From positions 5,704,001 to 5,768,000 of the forward strand of contig NZ_CP047650.1 of NCBI RefSeq assembly GCF_009906855.1: a stretch of 64,000 nucleotides of DNA, in the 5' to 3' direction. This document shows positions 9,895-23,917 of this stretch, piece by piece. This DNA is from Xylophilus rhododendri. Lineage in GTDB: Bacteria > Pseudomonadota > Gammaproteobacteria > Burkholderiales > Burkholderiaceae_C. The stretch's first letter is position 1. Each line of letters begins with the position of its first letter. Position numbers and translations under genes: made by a program. Below the pieces are notes generated by a model, which worked only from the letters and a program-made list of their open reading frames with translations, did not search any database and was not told where the DNA came from.

Positions 9895-10302
9895 ATGAAA
9901 ACCGTGCCCGTCCTGGTCGATGAAAGAGAAGTGGTCTGCACCGCGATCCGCGCGCAGGGGGCCGGGGGGCAGAACGTCAACAAGGTGTCGAGCGCGGTGC
10001 ACCTGCGCTTCGACATTCCCGCCAGTTCGCTGCCCGACGATGTGAAGCAGCGCCTGCTGGCCAGCTCCGACAGCCGCATCACCCGCGAAGGCGTGCTGGT
10101 GCTCAAGGCCCAGCAGCACCGCACGCAGGAGATGAACCGGGCCGATGCGCTGGCGCGGCTGCAGGCCATCGTGGACAGCGTGGCGGTGGCGCCCACGGTG
10201 CGTCGCGCCACCAAGCCGACTTATGGCTCCAGGATGCGGCGGCTGGAGGGCAAGAGCATCCGTTCCGACACCAAGAGCCTGCGCGGCCGGGTGCGCGACT
10301 GA
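9895..10302 (+). CDS. arfB: Alternative ribosome-rescue factor / peptidyl-tRNA hydrolase ArfB
   Basis: 135 residues, close to E. coli ArfB (140). The catalytic GGQ (residues 24-26, in RAQGAGGQNVNKV) hydrolyses peptidyl-tRNA on stalled ribosomes. The C-terminal tail is rich in Lys/Arg (RMRRLEGKSIRSDTKSLRGRVRD), as needed to thread the empty mRNA channel. No codon-recognition domain is present, which separates it from RF1/RF2. The ATG at 9895 is used; the in-frame start 78 bases upstream overlaps pncB. Confidence 0.93.
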   Translation: MKTVPVLVDEREVVCTAIRAQGAGGQNVNKVSSAVHLRFDIPASSLPDDVKQRLLASSDSRITREGVLVLKAQQHRTQEMNRADALARLQAIVDSVAVAPTVRRATKPTYGSRMRRLEGKSIRSDTKSLRGRVRD

Positions 10303-10321
10303 GGCTCTGCGTGGCCTGGCG

Positions 10322-10747
10322 CTATTCGTTCAGCAGGACGAACTGGAGCGCCAGTTTCGGCAATTGGCTGGGGTAGGGCGTGATGGTGACGGCCGCGTTT
10401 CTTCTCAGTTCGAATCCCGGAACTTCGCCGTGCAGCGTGTCGCCGAAGCCGCCGATGGAGATTTCCTGCGCCTGCTGAAATTGCAGCCGATCGGTATTGG
10501 CCTCCCACAGCTTGATCTTTCCTTCGATCAGCTTGCCGGATTCGGTGCGCGGCTTGGTCCATGGCTTTTGAAGCGGCGCGACGAAGTCATAGCTGAAGTC
10601 GGACCACAGGACCGGGTCCATGCACCGCAGGGACCAGCCGTCGTCGCGGATGTTGATCATGAGCGGACAGGCACCTAAATTGAAAAACCCGCCTGCGCCG
10701 TTTTCGACGAGGCCGGTTCCGCCCATGATCTTGATATAGCTTGCCAT
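10322..10747 (-). CDS. Hypothetical protein, 141 residues
   Basis: I do not recognise this protein. It has 141 residues, no signal peptide and no membrane helix, and is mostly beta-strand sequence with many aromatic and Gly residues (MGGTGLVENGAGGFFNLG near the start, ISIGGFGDTLHGEVPG near residue 100). Codon usage is less GC-biased than in its neighbours. It converges on arfB with a 19-base gap and faces the AT-rich stretch that follows. A cytosolic accessory protein of unknown role is all that can be said. Confidence 0.55.
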   Translation of the reverse strand: MASYIKIMGGTGLVENGAGGFFNLGACPLMINIRDDGWSLRCMDPVLWSDFSYDFVAPLQKPWTKPRTESGKLIEGKIKLWEANTDRLQFQQAQEISIGGFGDTLHGEVPGFELRRNAAVTITPYPSQLPKLALQFVLLNE

Positions 10748-11114
10748 TTTCTACCTGAGCATGCTGGTTGCGAGTACGCACTCCAGTTTGTCGAGGTGTT
10801 GGCATTCATCAAATAGGGAGGGTGTACTAGCTAATGGTTTGGGTGCGTTAGTGGCTTGGATGTTTGAAAAATCGTCGGCGCGGCCAATGACTGTTATGCA
10901 TGTGGCAACAAGTAAAACATTTTTTCAAACTTTAATTAACTTAAAACCAACTCCAGCTTGTGTCTAGGAAATCTGTTTTAGAGAAGGCTCAATGAAAATT
11001 TGATGGATCTGAGGATGTTCACATTTGGGTGTAAGTGTTTATTATGCGGCGCTTCGAGTACATCGCGAGCAAGCCAATGCGTCAACGCTTGCGAATTTTC
11101 CAAGTGACATCCAA
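10748..11114. other. AT-rich intergenic stretch
   Basis: About 370 bases between the hypothetical gene and the BacA-like gene, visibly poorer in GC than the rest of the window, with runs such as AACATTTTTTCAAAC and TTTAATTAACTTAAAA near 10917-10950. No convincing gene, RNA or inverted repeat is seen. It probably holds the promoters of the flanking divergent genes and may mark acquired DNA. Confidence 0.5.
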
Positions 11115-11716
11115 ATGCGCGACTCTGCTGCAAATCATATTCAATTGTCCGAATCTTCGCGGCCACCACCAATAAACAGATTGGCCACTATTTGCGACGA
11201 CCCCCTTGGACTCACGTGCAGTATGGACGTGGCAAGCAGATGGGGCGCGGCACGGGAATTGCTGCCACACTCCTCTTTCGAATTGGCCGCACTGTCAGTC
11301 AAGGAGGGAAATGCGGATGCATTCCTTGTCGCAGGAGCCTATCCGCATTTGAATGCATTCATCATGGATGCGGATTTGCTCGTGCGCGACACGTTCGTCA
11401 TGAAGATTCCGGCCCTGATTCTCGCGTGCAGAGCCAATGAAAGGAGCAATGAATTCGGCACGCTGTTTCATCACCCCGCAGTGACGCCGTTGCTTTCAGA
11501 GCTTGCAGTCGGTTGGAAAGAGGCCGTGCATGCTCCGTCAAATTCGCAAGCTTGTCGTGAGCTTATTTCCGCGCCCGGTCCGGCGCTTTGTATTACCAAC
11601 TCCTTTGCGTAAAACATTTCGGGCTGAAGGTTTTGAGCATCCTGCGCGAAGGAATCCTGATGCCGTGGATTTGCTTTGAAAAAAGGCGGGCGCTTTCGGA
11701 AGCTCCGACGCGATGA
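11115..11716 (+). pseudogene. BacA-like prephenate decarboxylase family protein, one-base frameshift near 11604
   Basis: From the ATG at 11115 the frame stops at 11612, but a -1 shift just before that stop continues as VKHFGLKVLSILREGILMPW to a TGA at 11716. Joined, they give about 200 residues, the length of Bacillus BacA (204), which decarboxylates prephenate in bacilysin synthesis. Recalled BacA features line up: SFE, a GAYPHLNAFIMDADL stretch for VPHAYDGIKHFYMRPDL, HHP, SNSQA, CITN for ALTN, then KHFGL for QKYGL and a final P-W. The gap between TN and GL matches BacA only if one base is added. The usual GPEGT motif is altered (DPLGLT), so substrate and activity are uncertain. The alignment is by eye from memory. 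The stop at 11716 overlaps the ribosome site of the following MFS gene. Confidence 0.5.
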
Positions 11717-11725
11717 AAGGTCGCC

Positions 11726-12892
11726 ATGCATGATGGAAAAACCAAGTCTGGCGGCGGTGTGGCCGCGCTGGTGCTGGGCGTGGTTGCGATCGGCATTGAA
11801 GGCTTGATCGTCGCGCCCGTATTGGCCGACATATCGGGAGCCTTCGGTGTGGCCCCGGCGCAGGCTGCCTCGGTGGTGTCGGCTTACGGGCTGTCGCTGG
11901 CGATCGTCGCGCCGCTGGTCGCTTTGCTGGGATGGCGCGTGTCGCGCAAGACCGCCATGCGCGCGGGATTGATCATGTTTACCGCAGCAGGCCTGCTGTG
12001 CGCCTGCGCTTCGAGTTTCCAGACCCTTTTGCTGGCCCGTGCGGCTTGTGGCGCCGCGGTGGGAATTTATCTGCCCGCGTGTTATGCCTACGTAGGTGAT
12101 ACGACAGCTTATGAACAGCGGGGCCGGGTGATGGGGCGCGTGATGGCCGGCTGGTCTTTGGCTTTGATCCTGGGAGTCCCGCTGGGCAGCTTGCTGGCTC
12201 AGTTCTGGGGCTGGCGATCTGCGTTCATCGTGACGTCCGCCCTGAGCGCTGTGGCGGCCGTGATGGTGGCCAGGCTGCCGGCCGGGCCGCCGCAGGCGGC
12301 CGCATCGAGCCTTTTGCCGCTCTCCGGCAGGCTGTATTTGGGCAAGGGTGTGCCGGCACTGCTGCTCCTCAATTTCTTCGACATGTTGAGCTTCTACGGC
12401 GTCTACACCTTCCTCGGTGTGGCGGTGAGGCAGCGACTGGGCGGGGGCAGCGGGTTCTTCGGGTGGTTCGTGTGCTGTTATCGCCTTGGGCTGCTGCTCA
12501 GCACTTCCAATGCCCGTGTCCTGGATCGTTTCGGCAAGGAGCGTGTGCTGGGGCTGGTGCTGGTCTTGCTGGCAGGCCTGCTCGGGCTGCTGCCGGCGGC
12601 GCTGCAGCATGTGACGGCGCTCGCGGGGGTGATGCTGGTCTGGGGTGTGCTGCAGGGCCTGGCACAGACCGGCAGCGCCACCCTGGTCACGGCCGCGTCC
12701 GGCACCGCGCGCGGGCTGGCGATGGCATGCATGAGCTGCAGCACCTACATGGCGGTCGGAATTGGTTCTTTTGCTGGCGGCCGGCTGATGCACGCAATGG
12801 GTTTCGAAGCGCTGGCGCTGGCTGGCACGCTGTCTGCGGTGCTGGCGTTGGGCCTGCTTCGTCGATATTCAGCCGCGAAGCCGACCATTTGA
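11726..12892 (+). CDS. MFS transporter (DHA1-type efflux, 12 helices)
   Basis: 388 residues with twelve hydrophobic helices and the MFS loop 2-3 motif in reduced form (GWRVSRKTAMRAG) as well as GRVMGRVMAGWSLALILGVPLGS (motif C-like helix 5 of exporters). GAAAGG precedes the ATG at 11726 by five bases. It lies nine bases after the restored end of the BacA-like gene, so the two form an operon. Bacilysin loci also pair BacA with an MFS exporter (BacE, about the same length) that gives self-protection; by analogy this may export the product, but drug or metabolite efflux in general is as likely. Confidence 0.8.
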   Translation: MHDGKTKSGGGVAALVLGVVAIGIEGLIVAPVLADISGAFGVAPAQAASVVSAYGLSLAIVAPLVALLGWRVSRKTAMRAGLIMFTAAGLLCACASSFQTLLLARAACGAAVGIYLPACYAYVGDTTAYEQRGRVMGRVMAGWSLALILGVPLGSLLAQFWGWRSAFIVTSALSAVAAVMVARLPAGPPQAAASSLLPLSGRLYLGKGVPALLLLNFFDMLSFYGVYTFLGVAVRQRLGGGSGFFGWFVCCYRLGLLLSTSNARVLDRFGKERVLGLVLVLLAGLLGLLPAALQHVTALAGVMLVWGVLQGLAQTGSATLVTAASGTARGLAMACMSCSTYMAVGIGSFAGGRLMHAMGFEALALAGTLSAVLALGLLRRYSAAKPTI

Positions 12893-12989
12893 AAGAGCCG
12901 GCCGTATGTCACCAATGGTCTGCTGCGCTTCTGCAAGTGCGCGGCAGCGGGTGGGCCGTGCTGCACACCAGTACGCGCAAGCCTATAAA

Positions 12990-13021
12990 AAAGCCGGCGG
13001 CCCGTAAGGACCGCCGGCTTT
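12990..13021 (-). terminator. Rho-independent terminator downstream of icd (bidirectional)
   Basis: AAAGCCGGCGG and CCGCCGGCTTT form a perfect 11-bp stem with a 10-base loop. On the minus strand the stem ends in T-rich sequence, correct for the isocitrate dehydrogenase stop at 13052; the MFS gene on the plus strand can use it too. Confidence 0.85.
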
Positions 13022-13051
13022 CAGGAACGACCTGATCGACGCTGACGCGGA

Positions 13052-15897
<2,846 letters not shown>

Positions 15898-15995
15898 GGA
15901 TTGATTTTTTCGTCGTGGGCTGGTCTGTGGGAATATTTTGCTTGATTGGAGCGAATGAGGGCAAAAGCAGGCAAATTTCGCCCCGGCCGCGCTTC

Positions 15996-16001
15996 TAGAC
16001 T
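15996..16001 (+). promoter_or_regulatory. Putative -10 box for a leaderless metC mRNA
   Basis: TAGACT is six bases before the ATG at 16008 and there is no Shine-Dalgarno sequence between them. The spacing equals that of several other genes here. Confidence 0.4.
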
Positions 16002-16007
16002 TTCGGC

Positions 16008-17189
16008 ATGCCCCTGTCATCCCTGCTCGATTGCGAAACCCGCCTGGTCCACGGCGGCCGCGACCCCTCCAGCCATGCCGGCATGGTCAACACGCCGGCC
16101 TTTCGCGGCTCCACCATCGTGGCTTCGTCGCTCGACGAATGGGAGTCGCGCAAGCTGCCGGGCAACCCCTATGCCTCCTATGGCCGCTTCGGCACGCCGA
16201 CCACCCGGGCGCTGGAGACGGCGCTGGCGGACCTCGAGGGGGGCTTCCGCTCCATCGTCTTCCCCTCCGGCCTGGCCGCCTGCACCCACAGCCTGCTGGC
16301 CCTGCTGCGGCCGGGCGACCATGTGCTGATGACCGACAGCGTCTATGGTCCGACGCGTGCCTTCGCCACCACCGTGCTGCGCCGCTTCGGGGTGGAGACC
16401 GAGTTCTTCGACCCGGGCGCAGGCGCCGCCATCCGCGAACTGATCCGTCCGAACACACGGGTGGTCTATGTCGAATCGCCCGGCTCGGCCACCTTCGAAG
16501 TGCAGGACATACCGGCCATCGCCCGCGAGGCGCACCGTGTCGATGCCTTCGTGGTGATGGACAACACCTGGGCCAGCCCCCTGTTCTTCAAGCCCTTCGA
16601 GCATGGCGTGGACATCTCGGTGCAGGCGGCGACCAAGTACATCGTCGGCCATTCCGATGCGCTGCTCGGCGCGGCCACCGCCAACGAACGGGCCTGGCCG
16701 CTGCTGCAGCAGGTGGCGCACGATTTCGGCCAGACCGCGGGGCCGGACGACCTCTACCTGGCGCTGCGCGGCCTGCGCACCCTGTCGGTGCGGCTGAACC
16801 GGCATTGGGAGAACGGCGTGATGCTGGCGGAGGCGCTGGCCCGCCATCCCATGGTGGCGCAGGTGCTGCATCCGGCCTTGCCTTCGGATGCGGGGCACGC
16901 CATCTGGCGGCGCGACTTCACCGGTGCGAGCGGTCTGTTCGCCATCGCGCTGCAGCCGGTCGGCCGAGAGGGGCTGCGTGCCTTCTTCGACGGGCTGGAA
17001 CTGTTCGGCATCGGCCTGTCCTGGGGCGGCTACGAGAGCCTGGCGCTGCCGATGGATGCGCCCACCCGCTCGGTGAAACCCTGGCGGCATGCGGGGCCAC
17101 TGGTGCGCATCCATGCCGGGCTGGAATCCTGCAAGGACCTGATCGAGGACATGAGCGCCGCGCTTGACCGCATGCAATGCCTGGTTTGA
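16008..17189 (+). CDS. metC: Cystathionine beta-lyase (PLP-dependent)
   Basis: 393 residues of the Cys/Met-metabolism fold-type I PLP family. The Schiff-base lysine is Lys210 in SVQAATKYIVGHSDAL, the same residue number as in E. coli MetC. Other marks are the start CETRLVHGG, YGRFGTPTTRALE, VVYVESPGS and the late SWGGYESLALP. It cleaves cystathionine to homocysteine, pyruvate and ammonia. The sequence favours MetC over gamma-synthase, and the divergent Lrp regulator suggests amino-acid control. Confidence 0.92.
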   Translation: MPLSSLLDCETRLVHGGRDPSSHAGMVNTPAFRGSTIVASSLDEWESRKLPGNPYASYGRFGTPTTRALETALADLEGGFRSIVFPSGLAACTHSLLALLRPGDHVLMTDSVYGPTRAFATTVLRRFGVETEFFDPGAGAAIRELIRPNTRVVYVESPGSATFEVQDIPAIAREAHRVDAFVVMDNTWASPLFFKPFEHGVDISVQAATKYIVGHSDALLGAATANERAWPLLQQVAHDFGQTAGPDDLYLALRGLRTLSVRLNRHWENGVMLAEALARHPMVAQVLHPALPSDAGHAIWRRDFTGASGLFAIALQPVGREGLRAFFDGLELFGIGLSWGGYESLALPMDAPTRSVKPWRHAGPLVRIHAGLESCKDLIEDMSAALDRMQCLV

Positions 17190-17198
17190 TTCCGCGGT

Positions 17199-17204
17199 GA
17201 GAAT
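17199..17204 (+). promoter_or_regulatory. Putative -10 box for the 17212 gene, leaderless type
   Basis: (T)GAGAAT lies seven bases before the ATG at 17212; no ribosome-binding sequence is present. Confidence 0.35.
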
Positions 17205-17211
17205 CGGCGCA

Positions 17212-18720
17212 ATGGAATCGACAAGTCTCCCTTTTCACACCCGGGCACAGGGCCTGGCCGCACTGGAGAGCCGGCTGGCCCAGGACCTGAGCTATCTCGG
17301 CTGGCCGGCCAAGCGCTGGATGCCGGCCCTCACGCATGAAGGCGAGCCGGTGCTGGACGTGGCCATCATCGGCGGTGGCCAGGCCGGCCTGGCCGCCTGG
17401 GTCGGCCTGGCGCAGCAGGGCATACGCGCGGTGGTGCTCGACCGTGCCCCGGCCGGCTTCGAAGGCCCCTGGGCCACCACCGCCCGCATGGAGACCCTGC
17501 GTTCGCCCAAGGAACTCACCGGCCCGGCCATGGGCCTGCCGGCGCTGACCTTCCGCGCCTGGTTCGAGGCGCAGTTCGGCGAGCAGGCCTGGGCCGCGCT
17601 CGACAAGATCCCGCGCCTGCAGTGGATGGACTACCTGCGCTGGTACCGCCAGGCCATGGGCGTGGACGTGCGCAACGACGTCGAGGTCACGGCCATCCTG
17701 CCGCGCGCCGATGGCCTGGTGCGGCTGGAACTGCGTACGCCCGAAGAACACAGCAGCCTGCTGGCCCGCCGGGTGGTGCTGGCCACCGGCCGCGACGGGC
17801 TGGGCGGCGCGGCCATCCCCGGCTTCGTGCACCGGCTGCCGCGCGAGCGTTGGGCGCATTCCTCCGATGCCATGGACTACGCCGCCCTGGCCGGCAAGCG
17901 GGTGGTGGTGGTCGGCGCCGGCTCGTCCTCGATGGACAGCGCCGCCACCGCGATGGAGATGGGCGCGGCCAGCGTGGACCTGCTGATCCGCCGCGACGAC
18001 CTGCCGCGCGTCAACAAGGGCAAGGGCGCAGGCTCGCCCGGCCTGGTGCATGGCCACTACGACCTGCCCGACGAGCACAAATGGCGCATCCGCCACTACA
18101 TCAACAAACTCAACGTGCCGCCGCCACGCGGCAGCACCCAGCGGGTGTCGAGTCATGCGAACGTGCGTTTCAACTTCGGCTGCGCCATCCTGGATGTGGC
18201 CATGCGCGGCGACACCCTGGTGATCGCCACGCCCAAGGGCCGTTTCGAGGCCGACTTCCTGATCGTGGCCACCGGCTTTCGCATCGACTGGTTCAGCCGG
18301 CCCGAGTTCGCCGCCATCGCGCCCCATGTGCGGTCCTGGAGCCAGCGCTTCCGACCCGCGCCGGGCGACGAGGACCAGGAACTGAACGACTCGCCCGACC
18401 TCGGCCCGGCCTTCGAACTGCAGGAAAAGACGCCCGGCGAATGCCCAGGCCTGGACCGCATCCACTGCTTCTGCTACCCGGCGGCGCTGTCGCACGGCAC
18501 CGTCTCGGGCGACATCCCGGCCATCAGCGAGGGCGCGCGCCGGCTGTCTCAAGGCATCGCAAGCTTGTTCTACGCGCAGGATTTCGAACTGCACTTCGCC
18601 AACGTGCTGGCTTACGATGAGCCCGAACTGCTGGGCGACGAATGGGTGCCCGCCGGCACCGAGCACATCCTGCAGCCCGACCCCACATCCCTGACGACCT
18701 CATCCGGTACACAGCCATGA
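17212..18720 (+). CDS. FAD/NAD(P)-binding oxidoreductase, flavin monooxygenase-like
   Basis: 502 residues with two Rossmann motifs: VAIIGGGQAGLAA near residue 48 for FAD and VVVVGAGSSSMDSA near residue 236 for NAD(P). The LVATG-type strand signature appears as VVLATGRDG and FLIVATGFRIDW. The layout resembles class B flavin monooxygenases and N-hydroxylases, but no diagnostic FMO motif is complete, so the substrate is unknown. The ATG at 17212 is used rather than an ATG 48 bases earlier inside metC. The stop overlaps the next start as ATGA, tying it to the two AhpD-fold proteins that follow. Confidence 0.8.
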   Translation: MESTSLPFHTRAQGLAALESRLAQDLSYLGWPAKRWMPALTHEGEPVLDVAIIGGGQAGLAAWVGLAQQGIRAVVLDRAPAGFEGPWATTARMETLRSPKELTGPAMGLPALTFRAWFEAQFGEQAWAALDKIPRLQWMDYLRWYRQAMGVDVRNDVEVTAILPRADGLVRLELRTPEEHSSLLARRVVLATGRDGLGGAAIPGFVHRLPRERWAHSSDAMDYAALAGKRVVVVGAGSSSMDSAATAMEMGAASVDLLIRRDDLPRVNKGKGAGSPGLVHGHYDLPDEHKWRIRHYINKLNVPPPRGSTQRVSSHANVRFNFGCAILDVAMRGDTLVIATPKGRFEADFLIVATGFRIDWFSRPEFAAIAPHVRSWSQRFRPAPGDEDQELNDSPDLGPAFELQEKTPGECPGLDRIHCFCYPAALSHGTVSGDIPAISEGARRLSQGIASLFYAQDFELHFANVLAYDEPELLGDEWVPAGTEHILQPDPTSLTTSSGTQP

Positions 18721-19226
18721 CTTCTCCCGACATCATCGACGGCGTGGTGCCCCTGGCCGCAGGCCATCCGGTGCACGCCCTGCGCCACGAACGCCAGAAG
18801 GTGGTGGCCGCCACCCAGGCCAGCTACGAAGCCCTGTTCGCCCCCGAAGTGCGCGACATTTCCGTGCCCGAGCGCCTGATGGTGGCGCTGCATGCCAGCC
18901 GGCTCTCGCGCTCGGACAGCCTGGCCGCCGTCTACCGCGCCCGGCTGGTGGAGGAGGGCGCCAAGGCCGCCCTGATCGACGCGGTCGACGCCGGCCTGCC
19001 GCTGCCCGACAACGAGGAGCGCCTGGCCACCATCCTGGCCTTCACCGGCAAGCTGATCACCAAGCCGATCGACGGCGACCGCGAGGCCGTCGAGGAACTC
19101 ACGGCCGTGGGCCTGAGCACGCCGGCCGTGGTGGCGCTGGGCCAGCTGATTTCCTTCCTGTCCTACCAGATCCGCGTCGTCGCAGGGCTCAAGGCCCTGG
19201 TCGCCGCCACCGGAGACGCAGCATGA
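18717..19226 (+). CDS. CMD domain protein, Avi_7170-type (AhpD-like fold, no CxxC)
   Basis: 169 residues, all-helical, of the carboxymuconolactone decarboxylase/AhpD superfamily. It starts MTSPDIIDGVVPLAAGHPVHALR and resembles the CMD family known to occur beside a second AhpD-fold protein (Avi_7170/Avi_7169 families). It lacks the redox CxxC pair, so it is probably a structural or binding partner. Four-base overlaps on both sides (ATGA at 18717 and 19223) show tight coupling with the flavoprotein and the peroxidase-like protein. Confidence 0.8.
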   Translation: MTSPDIIDGVVPLAAGHPVHALRHERQKVVAATQASYEALFAPEVRDISVPERLMVALHASRLSRSDSLAAVYRARLVEEGAKAALIDAVDAGLPLPDNEERLATILAFTGKLITKPIDGDREAVEELTAVGLSTPAVVALGQLISFLSYQIRVVAGLKALVAATGDAA

Positions 19227-19831
19227 GCGACGCCGCCAACACCCCCATCCGCATCAACGGCTTCACCAACGAGACCCTGGGCTGGAAACCCTGGCTCGAC
19301 ACGGTGGAGTTCGCCAGCGCCACGCCCGAGCAGGTCGCCGCGCTGGAGGAGATGAGCCCGGTCGCCAAGAACTCGCCCTACTTCCTGCTGCTGGCGCACC
19401 AGCCCGAGATCCTGAAGCAGCGCTCCATCGCCTTCAACGCCATCATGTTCGCGCCGGGCGGCATGCCGCGCGCGGAGCGGGAACTGGGCGCAACGGTGGA
19501 GTCGGTGGTCAACGGCTGCGTCTACTGCACCTCGGTGCATGCGCAGCGCTTCGAGCAGCTGGCCAAGCGCAACGACGTGATCACCCAGGTCTTCGAGGAT
19601 CCGCAGACCGCCGGCACCAGCGAGCGCGAGAAGGCCATCGTGGCCTTTTCCATCCTGCTCGGCCAGCATCCGGAGAACGTCACGGCCGAGCACATCCGCG
19701 TGCTGCGCAAAGCAGGGCTGACGGATACCGAGATCCACGACCTGGTCCATTCCGTGGCCCTGTTCGCCTGGGCCAACCGGCTGATGCTGAACCTGGGCGA
19801 AGCCGTGTTGCCCGAGGCGCCTTCCGCCTAG
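19223..19831 (+). CDS. Alkylhydroperoxidase domain protein, Avi_7169-type
   Basis: 202 residues with the AhpD redox motif CVYCTSVH (Cys99, Cys102, His106), which supports a peroxidase or disulfide-exchange role. Helical AhpD fold follows, with REKAIVAFSILL and the C-terminal MLNLGEAVLP. It belongs with the preceding CMD protein as a known gene pair. With the flavoprotein upstream and a Bug solute-binding protein downstream, the set looks like an oxidative catabolic unit that includes its own peroxide or radical defence; the substrate is not known. Confidence 0.83.
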   Translation: MSDAANTPIRINGFTNETLGWKPWLDTVEFASATPEQVAALEEMSPVAKNSPYFLLLAHQPEILKQRSIAFNAIMFAPGGMPRAERELGATVESVVNGCVYCTSVHAQRFEQLAKRNDVITQVFEDPQTAGTSEREKAIVAFSILLGQHPENVTAEHIRVLRKAGLTDTEIHDLVHSVALFAWANRLMLNLGEAVLPEAPSA

Positions 19832-19934
19832 AAGCCGCTCGGAATATTTCCGAGCAAGCTCATGCGCGGGCCGGATAAGGGTGGGCGATGTGGGTGATAC
19901 CGTCGCCTGGCATCCAATTTGCCTAGCTTCCTCC

Positions 19935-20951
19935 ATGCAAAAAACCTCCGCCTTTGCCCGTTCCACCCGCTTCGGCGCCCTCGGTCTTCTCGGCGCAGTG
20001 CTCGGCCTGGCTTCGGCCACGCCCGCCTTCGCGCAGGAATGGCCCTCCGCCAAGCCGATCACCCTGATCATGGGATTCCCGGCCGGCTCCGGCGTGGACG
20101 TGGTGGCGCGCAGCATCCAGGAGCCGCTGTCGAAGAAGCTCGGGCAGCAGGTCATCATCGACTACAAGTCCGGCGCCGCCGGCAACATCGCCAGCGAGTA
20201 CGTGGCCCACGCCAAACCGGACGGCTACACCCTGGCCTTCGGCACCGCCGCCACGCACGGCAGCAACGCGGCGATCTACAAGAAGCTGCCCTTCGACGTG
20301 GAGACCGACTTCGTGCCGGTGGCCCCGGTGCTGGACGTGTCCAATGTGCTGGTGATCAACCCAGACGTGATCGACGTGAAGACCCTCAAGGAGTTCGTCG
20401 CCGAGGTAAAGGCCCACCCCGGCAAGTACAACTACGCCTCCACCGGCAACGGCGCCGGCACCCACATGGCGTTTGCCGAGTTCAACGCCCGCACCGGCCT
20501 GCAGATGGTGCACGTGCCCTACAAGGGTGGCCCGGAAGCGATCACCTCGGTGGCGCGCGGCGAGACCTGCTGCATCATGAACCAGGTGCAGACGGTGCTG
20601 CCCCAGTACAAGGCCGGCAAGGTGCGGCTGCTGGGCGTGACGACGATCAAGCCGGTGCCGGCGATCAAGGAGGTGCCCACCATCGCCTCCAGCGGCCTGC
20701 CGGGCACCGAGGGTTTCGACAGTTCGATCTGGTTCGCGGTGTTCGCGCCCAAGGGCACGGATGCGGCCATCGTCTCCAAATTGAATGCGGCCATCGGCGC
20801 CGTCATGCAGGACCCGGAACTGCGCGCCAAATTCGAGGCCCAGGGCAACAGCATCCGCATCGAGGATCCGGCCCAGTTCAAAAAGACGGTGCACGACAAC
20901 CGCCTGAAGTGGGCCGAGGTCGCCAAGGCCGCCAACATCAGCGTCGACTGA
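19935..20951 (+). CDS. Bug-type tripartite tricarboxylate transporter solute-binding protein
   Basis: 338 residues from the ATG at 19935, which gives a Sec signal peptide (LGAVLGLASATPAFAQ). The mature protein has the Bug family start WPSAKPITLIMGFPAGSGVDVVARS, the GAAGNIASEYVAHAKPDGYTLAFG block and VPYKGGPEAITSVARGE near residue 195. It binds an organic acid or related solute in the periplasm. No TctA/TctB membrane genes are nearby. Its position after the flavoprotein/AhpD genes suggests it captures their substrate or senses it. Confidence 0.9.
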   Translation: MQKTSAFARSTRFGALGLLGAVLGLASATPAFAQEWPSAKPITLIMGFPAGSGVDVVARSIQEPLSKKLGQQVIIDYKSGAAGNIASEYVAHAKPDGYTLAFGTAATHGSNAAIYKKLPFDVETDFVPVAPVLDVSNVLVINPDVIDVKTLKEFVAEVKAHPGKYNYASTGNGAGTHMAFAEFNARTGLQMVHVPYKGGPEAITSVARGETCCIMNQVQTVLPQYKAGKVRLLGVTTIKPVPAIKEVPTIASSGLPGTEGFDSSIWFAVFAPKGTDAAIVSKLNAAIGAVMQDPELRAKFEAQGNSIRIEDPAQFKKTVHDNRLKWAEVAKAANISVD

Positions 20952-20968
20952 GGCCGCGGCGCCGCCGG

Positions 20969-21973
20969 CTACGAGGCTGCTCGCACATGGGGGCCGGGAC
21001 GGTAGTGGTACCGATGCTCGGCCGGCAGGCCGCCCGACCGGCCGAAGCTGCGCAGCCTGACCCAGAAGGCCTGCCCTTCGGAGATGTGGAGGTCGGGAAA
21101 GATGAAGGTGTTGTCCTGTTCCAGGAGGATGCTCAGGGTGGGGAAACCCGTGCCGTGGATGGTGACTTCGAAACTCCGGTTGTCCGGATCTCCATCGCTC
21201 ACCTGCAGGCGTTCCCCGCCGGCCAGCGTGCCGCCCTCTTGCACGCCCACGATGCGGGGGGCGTAAGGCGGTGGGTCCGGCGGGTAGGGGCCGGGCGGAG
21301 CCGGAGGCAGTGGCGGCAGCGGCGGCAAGCTGCTCTCCATGTGCCTGGCCTTGAGGATGCGCACGTTGAAATCGACCTGCGCATTGAAATGCAGGGAGCC
21401 GACCACCATGGTCAGGAGAGGCGACTGGTCCCAGTCGCGGTTCCAGTGCTCCACCTGGAAAGTCCTGCCCGGCAGGGTCATCTTGAAGAGCCTGGTCGCG
21501 TCGAAGCCGGTGTTGAAGTGCCCGTACACCAGCTCGCCCATGGCGACGAGTTCATCGGGCGAATTGTTGGCGAACATCACCCACAGCTTTTCCTCGGGAT
21601 AGTTGCGCAACGGCAGCCGGTTGTTGAACCGTATGCCCTGCGGCGGCTGGTCCATCATTCCTTCCTCGGTCGGCAGCGGCCAATACTCCTTGTACTGGAT
21701 GCGGCCGACACCGCGGTCGTCCAGGCGCAGGCCGATCCAGTTGCTGTCGGCGGGAAAGGGGGGAACCGGGATACGCGCGGCTTCCGCGGACCGGCTGTGG
21801 TCGTCGCTGGGAAAACTGAAGTCGGCGATGGGCGGCTGCCGGTGTTGGCCGCGGGTGCGGATCTCGACTTCCTCGCCGCCGAGGCTCAGCATGATCCTGA
21901 GACCGTCGTCGCGCGCTTGCGCGTGGGTTGAAGAGGACACCCGCCGGGACCATCTTCCATCGTCTGTTGGCAT
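20969..21973 (-). CDS. Hypothetical protein with a proline-rich linker
   Basis: 334 residues from the ATG at 21973, which is preceded by GGGGAGTC. I do not recognise the family. An N-terminal beta-rich domain (about 1-210, with several Trp and Phe) is joined by a proline-rich linker (about 213-240, SLPPLPPLPPAPP followed by more proline) to a smaller beta domain (about 243-325) that looks like an Ig/IPT-type fold (VTIHGTGFPTLSILLEQ). There is no signal peptide or membrane helix. It lies between two Bug genes, convergent with one. The function is unknown; a surface or structural protein exported by another route is possible. Confidence 0.6.
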   Translation of the reverse strand: MPTDDGRWSRRVSSSTHAQARDDGLRIMLSLGGEEVEIRTRGQHRQPPIADFSFPSDDHSRSAEAARIPVPPFPADSNWIGLRLDDRGVGRIQYKEYWPLPTEEGMMDQPPQGIRFNNRLPLRNYPEEKLWVMFANNSPDELVAMGELVYGHFNTGFDATRLFKMTLPGRTFQVEHWNRDWDQSPLLTMVVGSLHFNAQVDFNVRILKARHMESSLPPLPPLPPAPPGPYPPDPPPYAPRIVGVQEGGTLAGGERLQVSDGDPDNRSFEVTIHGTGFPTLSILLEQDNTFIFPDLHISEGQAFWVRLRSFGRSGGLPAEHRYHYRPGPHVRAAS

Positions 21974-22076
21974 GTTGACTCCCCGCAATCCGAATGACCG
22001 CGTGAGTCCGAATGCTAGTGAGCGTGAGTCTGGAGGCGGGGGTGTTGCGCCTAGGCAGAAAGGGCTAGGGGCTGGG

Positions 22077-23039
22077 TCACTCGGCCTTGATGCCGCCGGT
22101 GCGGATCACTTTCTCCCAGCGCGCGTCGTCGCCGCTCACCACACGCTCCATCTCGGGCGCCGCGCCGCAGGTGTTCACCGCGCCGATGCGGGCGAACTGC
22201 TCTTTGGTCTCCGGCAGGCGGCAGGCTTCGAGCAGGGCGGCGACGATCTTGTCCGCGCGCTCCAGCGGCACCTTGGTCGGGCCCATCAGGCCGACCCAGA
22301 CCGGCACGTCCATGCCCTGCAGGCCGGTGGCGCCGCCGACGGTGGGCGGATGGCCCAGCTCATCCAGGCGGTTCTTCGAGAAGGTGCCGAGCACCCGCGC
22401 CTTGCCGCTCTCCACCATCGGGTCGATCGAGGCCGCGCTGGTGATGATCATGCTGACCTGGCCGCCGAGCAGGTCGGTCAGCGCGGGCGATGCGCCGCGA
22501 TAGGGCACATGCAGGATCTCGATGCCCGCGGCCTGTGCCAGCAGCGCGCCGGTCAGGTGCGAGACCGAGCCGTTGCCGGTGGAGGCGTAGCTCAGCTGGC
22601 CGGGCCTGGCCTTGGCGTCCTTCAGCACATCGGCCAGGGTCTTGTAGGGGCTGTCGCTGCGCACGGCCAGGGTCATGGGGGTGTCGGCCACCAGGGCGAC
22701 CGATTGCAGGTCGCGTTTGGGGTCGTAAGGCAGCTTCTGCAGGTGCGGCGCCACGGTGATCGCGCCGCCGGTGGCCATCAGCAGCGTGGCGCCGTCGGTG
22801 GACTTGGCGACGGTGTCGGCCGCCACGATGCCGCCCGCGCCGGCCTTGTTCTCCACGATGACCGGAAAGCCCAGCTTCAGCGTGAGTTTGGTGCCCAGGT
22901 AACGCGCGATCACGTCCTGCGAGCCGCCGGCGGCGAAGGGCACGACGATGCGCAGCGGCTTGTCGGCCTGGGCGAAGGCGGAGGTGGCGAGGGCCGTGGC
23001 CAGCAGGGCGAGGGTGAGGCGGGAGGGGCGCAGGGACAT
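22077..23039 (-). CDS. Bug-type tripartite tricarboxylate transporter solute-binding protein
   Basis: 320 residues with a signal peptide (LTLALLATALATSAFAQ) and the Bug core: RIVVPFAAGGSQDVIARYLG, NKAGAGGIVAADTVAKSTDGATLL and LHVPYRGASPALTDLLGGQVSM. It is an orphan, with no TctA/TctB genes and no obvious enzyme partner; the ABC transporter operon upstream is separated by a hairpin terminator. The ligand is unknown. Confidence 0.9.
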   Translation of the reverse strand: MSLRPSRLTLALLATALATSAFAQADKPLRIVVPFAAGGSQDVIARYLGTKLTLKLGFPVIVENKAGAGGIVAADTVAKSTDGATLLMATGGAITVAPHLQKLPYDPKRDLQSVALVADTPMTLAVRSDSPYKTLADVLKDAKARPGQLSYASTGNGSVSHLTGALLAQAAGIEILHVPYRGASPALTDLLGGQVSMIITSAASIDPMVESGKARVLGTFSKNRLDELGHPPTVGGATGLQGMDVPVWVGLMGPTKVPLERADKIVAALLEACRLPETKEQFARIGAVNTCGAAPEMERVVSGDDARWEKVIRTGGIKAE

Positions 23040-23063
23040 GGGGGACTCCAGGCAAAACGAACA

Positions 23064-23084
23064 AGGCCCGCACTGAGCGGGCCT
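23064..23084 (-). terminator. Probable terminator of the ABC transporter operon
   Basis: AGGCCCGC and GCGGGCCT form an 8-bp stem with a 5-base loop. Read on the minus strand it is followed by TGTTCGTTTT, a modest T-rich tail, 59 bases past the stop of the ATPase gene. Confidence 0.65.
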
Positions 23085-23142
23085 GCTGGACGGAAGTTTA
23101 AGCAGCTACATGGCTTGGGCCCAACATCTGGTGTGTCTGGTT

Positions 23143-23917
<775 letters not shown>

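What the first reader, a model, noticed from the sequence alone, without database searches (positions are those of the whole stretch)
11115..12892. Orphan BacA-like gene plus MFS exporter: a minimal bacilysin-type locus?
A roughly 200-residue protein, after repair of one frameshift, matches the plan and length of BacA, the prephenate decarboxylase of bacilysin synthesis, and overlaps the ribosome site of an MFS exporter, as BacA and BacE are paired in Bacillus. No other bac, NRPS or ligase gene is near. The protein departs from BacA at the GPEGT loop, so it could be a new branch acting on prephenate or another small acid. The locus sits beside AT-rich DNA and may be acquired. My alignment is by eye from memory.
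Basis: partly seen in the sequence, partly recalled or inferred. Interest (0 to 1): 0.75.

Follow-up and report, generated by a model that had tools for sequence, protein, structure and literature searches.

The report
Broken BacA-like enzyme plus exporter pair
This locus holds a damaged copy of a little-known enzyme gene, distantly related to the one that starts making the antibiotic bacilysin, next to an intact export pump; the same pair is kept intact in other bacteria, which suggests a very small, still unstudied system for making and exporting a natural product.

Summary
Window 11115-11716 encodes, in two overlapping frames, one protein of about 200 residues; relatives are single uninterrupted proteins. 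An intact MFS exporter follows (11726-12892). A modelled relative has the prephenate dehydratase (PDT) catalytic-domain fold without the ACT domain. The family lacks the dehydratase TRF and EN motifs, shares BacA's short A-Y loop, and forms its own clade next to BacA-type and TdaC-like proteins, marked by a changed GPxGT loop: a sister branch of BacA, not BacA. The enzyme-exporter pair is conserved: 5 of 5 named proteobacterial loci have it, with an AraC gene. In 14 of 14 Paenibacillus loci and a Priestia plasmid the enzyme sits instead with DUF2000, an ATP-grasp (L-amino-acid-ligase-type) gene and another MFS; a distant member is followed by a LysE exporter. Best reading: a dispensable, probably acquired unit that diverts prephenate (or a similar acid) into a non-aromatic amino acid and exports it. 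Substrate, reaction and product are inferred. The copy here is frameshifted, by decay or sequencing error. 'Bacilysin locus' is not supported; 'new BacA-like branch paired with an exporter' is.

The parts
11115..11612 (+). First part of the BacA-like (PDT-fold) enzyme gene, 165 codons and a premature stop
   Evidence: Open frame; matches relatives P0002-P0005 at 55-63% identity and the family profile at E 4.0e-66
11579..11716 (+). Last part of the same protein in the overlapping frame (stop 11714-11716), holding the family's M-P-W-I-C-F motif
   Evidence: Translation; separate profile match, positions 158-195, E 3.1e-9
11715..11720 (+). GAAAGG ribosome-site-like stretch of the exporter gene, overlapping the enzyme's stop
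   Evidence: Read by eye; not tested statistically
11726..12892 (+). Intact MFS exporter, 388 aa
   Evidence: PF07690 E 1.4e-41; 49.7-57.6% identical to the MFS next to the enzyme in 5 named proteobacterial loci
10748..11114 (.). AT-rich (43.3% GC) stretch upstream of the enzyme gene
   Evidence: one sigma-70-like promoter match in 10300-13100 against 0.8 expected, so no evidence
10305..13076 (.). 2772-bp stretch between the arfB and icd homologies that replaces a 577-bp stretch with a HIT-domain gene in the closest congener G003
   Evidence: blastn blocks; HIT domain. Ends are those of the alignments, so approximate

Best explanation
The locus is a damaged copy of a small, probably horizontally spread natural-product unit: a stand-alone PDT-fold enzyme of a sister branch of BacA, closely followed by an MFS exporter. 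Shown: family, fold (of a relative), broken frame here, conserved enzyme-exporter pairing, patchy occurrence. Inferred: intact members bind prephenate or a similar small acid and, lacking the dehydratase TRF threonine and arginine, do not make phenylpyruvate but carry out a non-aromatizing reaction, most likely decarboxylation as in BacA. A host aminotransferase would turn the keto acid into a non-proteinogenic amino acid, which the exporter pumps out, protecting the producer. In Bacillota the linked L-amino-acid-ligase-type enzyme would join it into a dipeptide; in Proteobacteria the free amino acid would be the product. In this genome the enzyme as read would lack its last two strands, so the unit is probably inactive unless the frameshift is a sequencing error.
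Against: No activity is shown for any member. At the TRF Thr position BacA-type rows keep Ser or Thr in 7 of 8 while the family has neither in 27 of 27, so its chemistry may differ from BacA's. The GPxGT loop is lost. The related TdaC has an obscure role (PMC7497051 passage), so prephenate is not assured. The exporter's best NCBIfam resemblance, far below the cut-off, is to chloramphenicol exporters, so a general drug pump is possible. No linked aminotransferase was recognised in the five proteobacterial loci, though their neighbours were only partly scanned. BacA-type comparison rows come from plasmid records, most not biochemically tested as far as I know.
Confidence: 0.5

Rival explanations
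1. The branch is an enzyme for another small acid (as TdaC may be), and the pair makes or disposes of a compound unrelated to prephenate.
For: The family differs from BacA at the GPxGT loop and the TRF Thr position; TdaC-like proteins share the A-Y loop (2 of 2) and TdaC's role is called obscure (PMC7497051 passage); the PDT fold also serves GqqA, titled a quorum-quenching acylase in PDB (7am0).
Against: The family is nearer to BacA-type than to PheA profiles, and in Bacillota it is linked to an L-amino-acid-ligase-type gene and an exporter, in Priestia also to an aminotransferase, as expected for a keto-acid or amino-acid precursor.
Confidence: 0.25
2. The protein is a non-catalytic ligand sensor that controls or assists the exporter; the PDT fold resembles periplasmic-binding and LysR effector domains.
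For: Dehydratase motifs are lost; lower-ranked structural matches are binding proteins and LysR effector domains; the gene sits beside an AraC regulator and an exporter.
Against: Close matches are enzymes of the PDT fold; many residues are near-invariant across the family, which looks like an active site; ligase-type and aminotransferase genes are linked in Bacillota.
Confidence: 0.12
3. About the state of this copy: the frameshift is a sequencing or assembly error and the gene is intact in the living strain.
For: The out-of-frame tail still matches the family (E 3.1e-9), the exporter is open, and apart from the frame change each piece reads without stops.
Against: Neighbouring conserved genes (icd, pncB, arfB, selO-like) read through without stops, so the assembly is not obviously poor. 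A recent real frameshift would look the same. No reads are available, and the attempt at an error rate was inconclusive.
Confidence: 0.4

Closest known systems
BacA-type prephenate decarboxylases (BacA; AerD, SalX and Plu3043 are recalled names, not compared here)
   Same: Length near 200 aa, no ACT domain, EN loop replaced by A-Y, no TRF Arg, M-x-W near the C-terminus, exporter nearby in several clusters
   Different: Own clade; GPxGT loop replaced; Ser/Thr at the TRF Thr position lost; no BacB, BacC, BacG-type genes recognised next to it. B. subtilis BacA itself was not fetched
Prephenate dehydratase PheA (PF00800)
   Same: Catalytic-domain fold; weak Pfam match in 24 of 36 members at E<=0.01
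   Different: TRF and EN motifs gone, no ACT domain; the genome has a normal PheA elsewhere
TdaC of the tropodithietic acid cluster (name recalled; the two compared genes are annotated 'prephenate dehydratase' and lie in a tda-like neighbourhood)
   Same: Short PDT-fold relative in a natural-product cluster, A-Y loop
   Different: Separate long branch in the tree, keeps GPxGT, other neighbours
Photorhabdus dihydrophenylalanine pathway
   Different: Its enzyme sequence and gene neighbourhood were not compared here

Membership tests
BacA prephenate decarboxylase | PDT catalytic fold without ACT domain, about 200 aa | tested here: met
   Model of intact relative P0002 and fold search; the window copy itself was not modelled
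BacA prephenate decarboxylase | TRF arginine and EN loop of dehydratases absent, A-Y loop present | tested here: met
   EN deleted 27 of 27; Arg absent 26 of 27; A-Y invariant in 36 of 36 rows
BacA prephenate decarboxylase | TLGPxGT/S loop | tested here: not met
   Invariant T-L-G-P-x-G in 7 of 7 BacA-type rows, absent in 36 of 36 family rows
BacA prephenate decarboxylase | Falls inside the BacA-type group in a tree | tested here: not met
   Own clade 97/95; 6 of 8 BacA-type rows form another clade 97/93, the other two unplaced (bootstrap not settled, long-branch warning)
BacA prephenate decarboxylase | Non-aromatizing decarboxylation of prephenate | not testable with these tools
   Needs enzyme assay
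Bacilysin-type (bac) locus | Dipeptide ligase (BacD-like) in or near the locus | tested here: not met
   None among nine neighbour ORFs scanned; genome-wide LAL_C2 has only one sub-cut-off match elsewhere, E 5.8e-5, 26 of 29.4 bits
Bacilysin-type (bac) locus | Exporter next to the BacA-like gene | tested here: met
   MFS at 11726-12892, conserved pairing; kinship to BacE itself not tested
Prephenate dehydratase (PheA) | TRF and EN active-site motifs | tested here: not met
   16 of 16 PDT rows have E-N and [TS]-R-F; 0 of 27 family rows have either
Prephenate dehydratase (PheA) | Pfam PDT score over the gathering cut-off | tested here: not met
   Window piece no hit; four close relatives 16.1-18.7 bits against 25.2

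The most novel reading that the evidence does not exclude
A third, uncharacterised branch of BacA/PDT-fold enzymes defines ligase-free natural-product units of two genes (three with AraC) in Proteobacteria: one enzyme diverts prephenate into a non-aromatic amino-acid antimetabolite with the help of a host transaminase, and a closely coupled MFS exports it. In Paenibacillus and Priestia the same branch feeds an L-amino-acid ligase to make an unknown dipeptide. It would be among the smallest antibiotic pathways known.
Probability: 0.33. Interest if true: 0.68.

Novelty: new variant of a known kind. Interest (0 to 1): 0.46.

Why it matters
Enzymes that divert prephenate open routes to unusual amino-acid antibiotics such as bacilysin and dihydrophenylalanine. 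A separate branch that is repeatedly paired with exporters, and in Bacillota also with a peptide-ligase-type gene, is a direct target for natural-product discovery and for learning how the PDT fold switches from dehydration to other chemistry. The window copy itself is probably dead and matters less than the family it reveals.

Tried and rejected
Direct matches of the 165-aa piece: none in Pfam or NCBIfam at E<=1, none among PDB sequences at E<=10. PDB profile searches: A2 none, A3 four weak matches, E 0.33-1.7, three of them binding-protein-type chains. Plasmid DNA search with window 10800-13000: no match.

Programmed frameshift: considered unlikely; I saw no slippery heptamer by eye at the overlap, and the enzyme reads in one frame in the five named proteobacterial loci and Enterococcus.

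Sequencing-error rate against congener G003: 13 of 98 ORFs with hits of at least 50% identity matched in several pieces, but many look like antisense shadow ORFs or neighbouring genes; I drew no rate from it.

Exporter rarity: at E<=1e-60 only the window's own genome of 399, but at most four candidates per genome were scored, so this is a weak negative. MFS relatives in Delftia and Tistrella were not checked for a partner enzyme. Eight longest-contig lengths are shared between the enzyme list and the MFS list, the window's own included; of these only the 47918-base contig was confirmed as a pair, as L012.

Low GC as a sign of acquisition is not uniform: the enzyme is below its surroundings in the window and the Acidovorax and Rhodopseudomonas loci but above them in the three Curvibacter loci.

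Not established: kinship of the exporter to BacE, a pocket comparison with ligand-bound PDT, the name of the organism (genome unnamed; Burkholderiales is my inference from relatives).

Literature: only open-licence PMC papers. Nine searches (listings, some cut at 15 or 20 rows) showed me no paper on this branch or on the enzyme-MFS pair; two searches returned none at all. Passages only were read in PMC10157211, PMC9147277, PMC7497051, PMC5897657 and PMC4392301. PMC2957524 and PMC3331721 are not held; I know them only from citing texts and recall.

Full report
What is there. On the plus strand, frame 1 from ATG 11115 runs 165 codons to a stop at 11610-11612. An overlapping frame, read from 11579, ends at 11714-11716 and carries the family's C-terminal M-P-W-I-C-F motif. 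A search with the 165-aa piece alone gave, besides the window itself, four relatives of 199-217 aa, 55-63% identical, which all run on through the part that is out of frame here. A profile of those four found two pieces of the window's genome separately (E 4.0e-66, a match that runs just past the stop, and E 3.1e-9). So one conserved protein is split by a frameshift in this assembly; decay and sequencing error cannot be told apart here. Going by the model of a relative, the part after the stop holds the last two strands, residues 186-192 and 196-204. The MFS gene at 11726-12892 is open over 388 codons.

Motifs (16 PDT, 8 BacA-type, 2 TdaC-like, 27 family rows and the window piece; 36 family rows). 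TRF: 15 of 16 PDT rows have T-R-F, one S-R-F. No BacA-type row of 8 has the Arg, and 7 of 8 keep Ser or Thr before it. In the family the Thr position is Ile, Val, Leu, Tyr or Ala in 27 of 27 and Arg is kept in 1 of 27. The E-N pair is in 16 of 16 PDT and deleted in 8 of 8 BacA-type and 27 of 27 family rows; 36 of 36 family rows read A-Y there, as do the two TdaC-like rows and the window. The W of M-x-W is in 8 of 8 BacA-type and 21 of 27 family rows. GPxGT is missing in 36 of 36 family rows. The tree (54 rows) splits PDT from the rest at 100/100 and holds the 28 family rows, window piece included, as one clade at 97/95; 6 of 8 BacA-type rows form a clade at 97/93, two are unplaced. The tool warned of an unsettled bootstrap and of long branches.

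Neighbourhoods. The scan of genome contigs gave 20 loci. Five are proteobacterial (an Acidovorax MAG, three Curvibacter, Rhodopseudomonas infernalis). In 5 of 5 the enzyme is followed by an MFS 49.7-57.6% identical to the window's, and an AraC-like gene lies upstream (four) or divergent (one) (Pfam-confirmed in 4 of 5). In 4 of 5 a start codon in the MFS frame overlaps the enzyme's stop (GTGA three times, ATGA once). The 14 Paenibacillus loci, 14 of 14, have DUF2000, ATP-grasp and MFS relatives of the Priestia plasmid genes, in the same divergent order; in one of them (L025) my ORF picker missed the enzyme, which the scan had found. The three ATP-grasp proteins scanned carry LAL_C2, and the Priestia one best matches the L-amino-acid ligase 4wd3 (E 1.3e-32), more weakly BacD (E 7.4e-7). 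Priestia adds an aminotransferase, which my search did not find in the Paenibacillus loci. The last locus, Enterococcus ureasiticus, has the enzyme followed by a DUF2000-like gene in pieces. Pairing with exporters of different families argues for a small exported product.

Here. The enzyme is found in 1 of 7 genomes of the genus, 1 of 60 relatives and 3 of 399 genomes of the order, the window's own counted each time; of the other two, G326 is a distant member and G211 is BacA-type by motif. In the closest congener G003 (icd 90% identical) the arfB and icd homologies lie 577 bp apart with a HIT-domain gene between; here 2772 bp lie between them. GC is 43% upstream, 54% in the enzyme and 66% in the MFS against 68% for the window; it is also low in the Acidovorax enzyme (52% against 66%) and the Rhodopseudomonas one (60.5% against 66%), but not in the three Curvibacter ones. 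This fits acquisition without proving it. No AraC relative was found in window 1-30000, no DUF2000 in the genome, and no LAL_C2 match over the cut-off. The genome has a normal PheA.

How it most likely works. BacA decarboxylates prephenate without aromatization (PMC9147277 passage), and in Photorhabdus such a decarboxylase followed by a transaminase yields the antibiotic dihydrophenylalanine (PMC5897657 passage). An enzyme of this kind with an exporter, using a host transaminase, could therefore be enough for an exported amino-acid antibiotic. That is the reading I favour for intact relatives; substrate, reaction and product are inferred. In this strain the unit is probably inactive unless resequencing removes the frameshift.

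Noticed in passing
window 10322-10747, minus strand: Open frame of 141 aa without a Pfam match, found in 1 of 60 related genomes (its own); part of the stretch absent from congener G003.
   Followed up: partly
window 15344-23143: About 7.8 kb between conserved blocks that is absent at this place in congener G003; its first part holds an Lrp/AsnC regulator, a Cys/Met-metabolism PLP enzyme, an FAD oxidoreductase, a CMD-family protein and a TctC receptor.
   Followed up: partly
L004, L013-L025, L028: Divergent block of BacA-sister enzyme + DUF2000 against ATP-grasp (LAL_C2 in 3 of 3 scanned) + MFS in a Priestia plasmid and 14 Paenibacillus loci: looks like an unstudied dipeptide cluster.
   Followed up: partly
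L044 3031-8731; L045 3145-8859: On plasmids of Pantoea and P. aeruginosa an annotated BacA gene sits with DUF2000, Dabb, an AMP-ligase, a transaminase, an ornithine-cyclodeaminase-like gene and a LysE exporter; DUF2000 and exporters thus recur beside both branches.
   Followed up: no
L027 10531-10937: DUF2000-like gene after the Enterococcus ureasiticus enzyme is interrupted by stops.
   Followed up: no
G000:C1:3415474-3415602: Sub-cut-off LAL_C2 match (E 5.8e-5, 26 of 29.4 bits) in a 623-codon open frame elsewhere in the genome.
   Followed up: no
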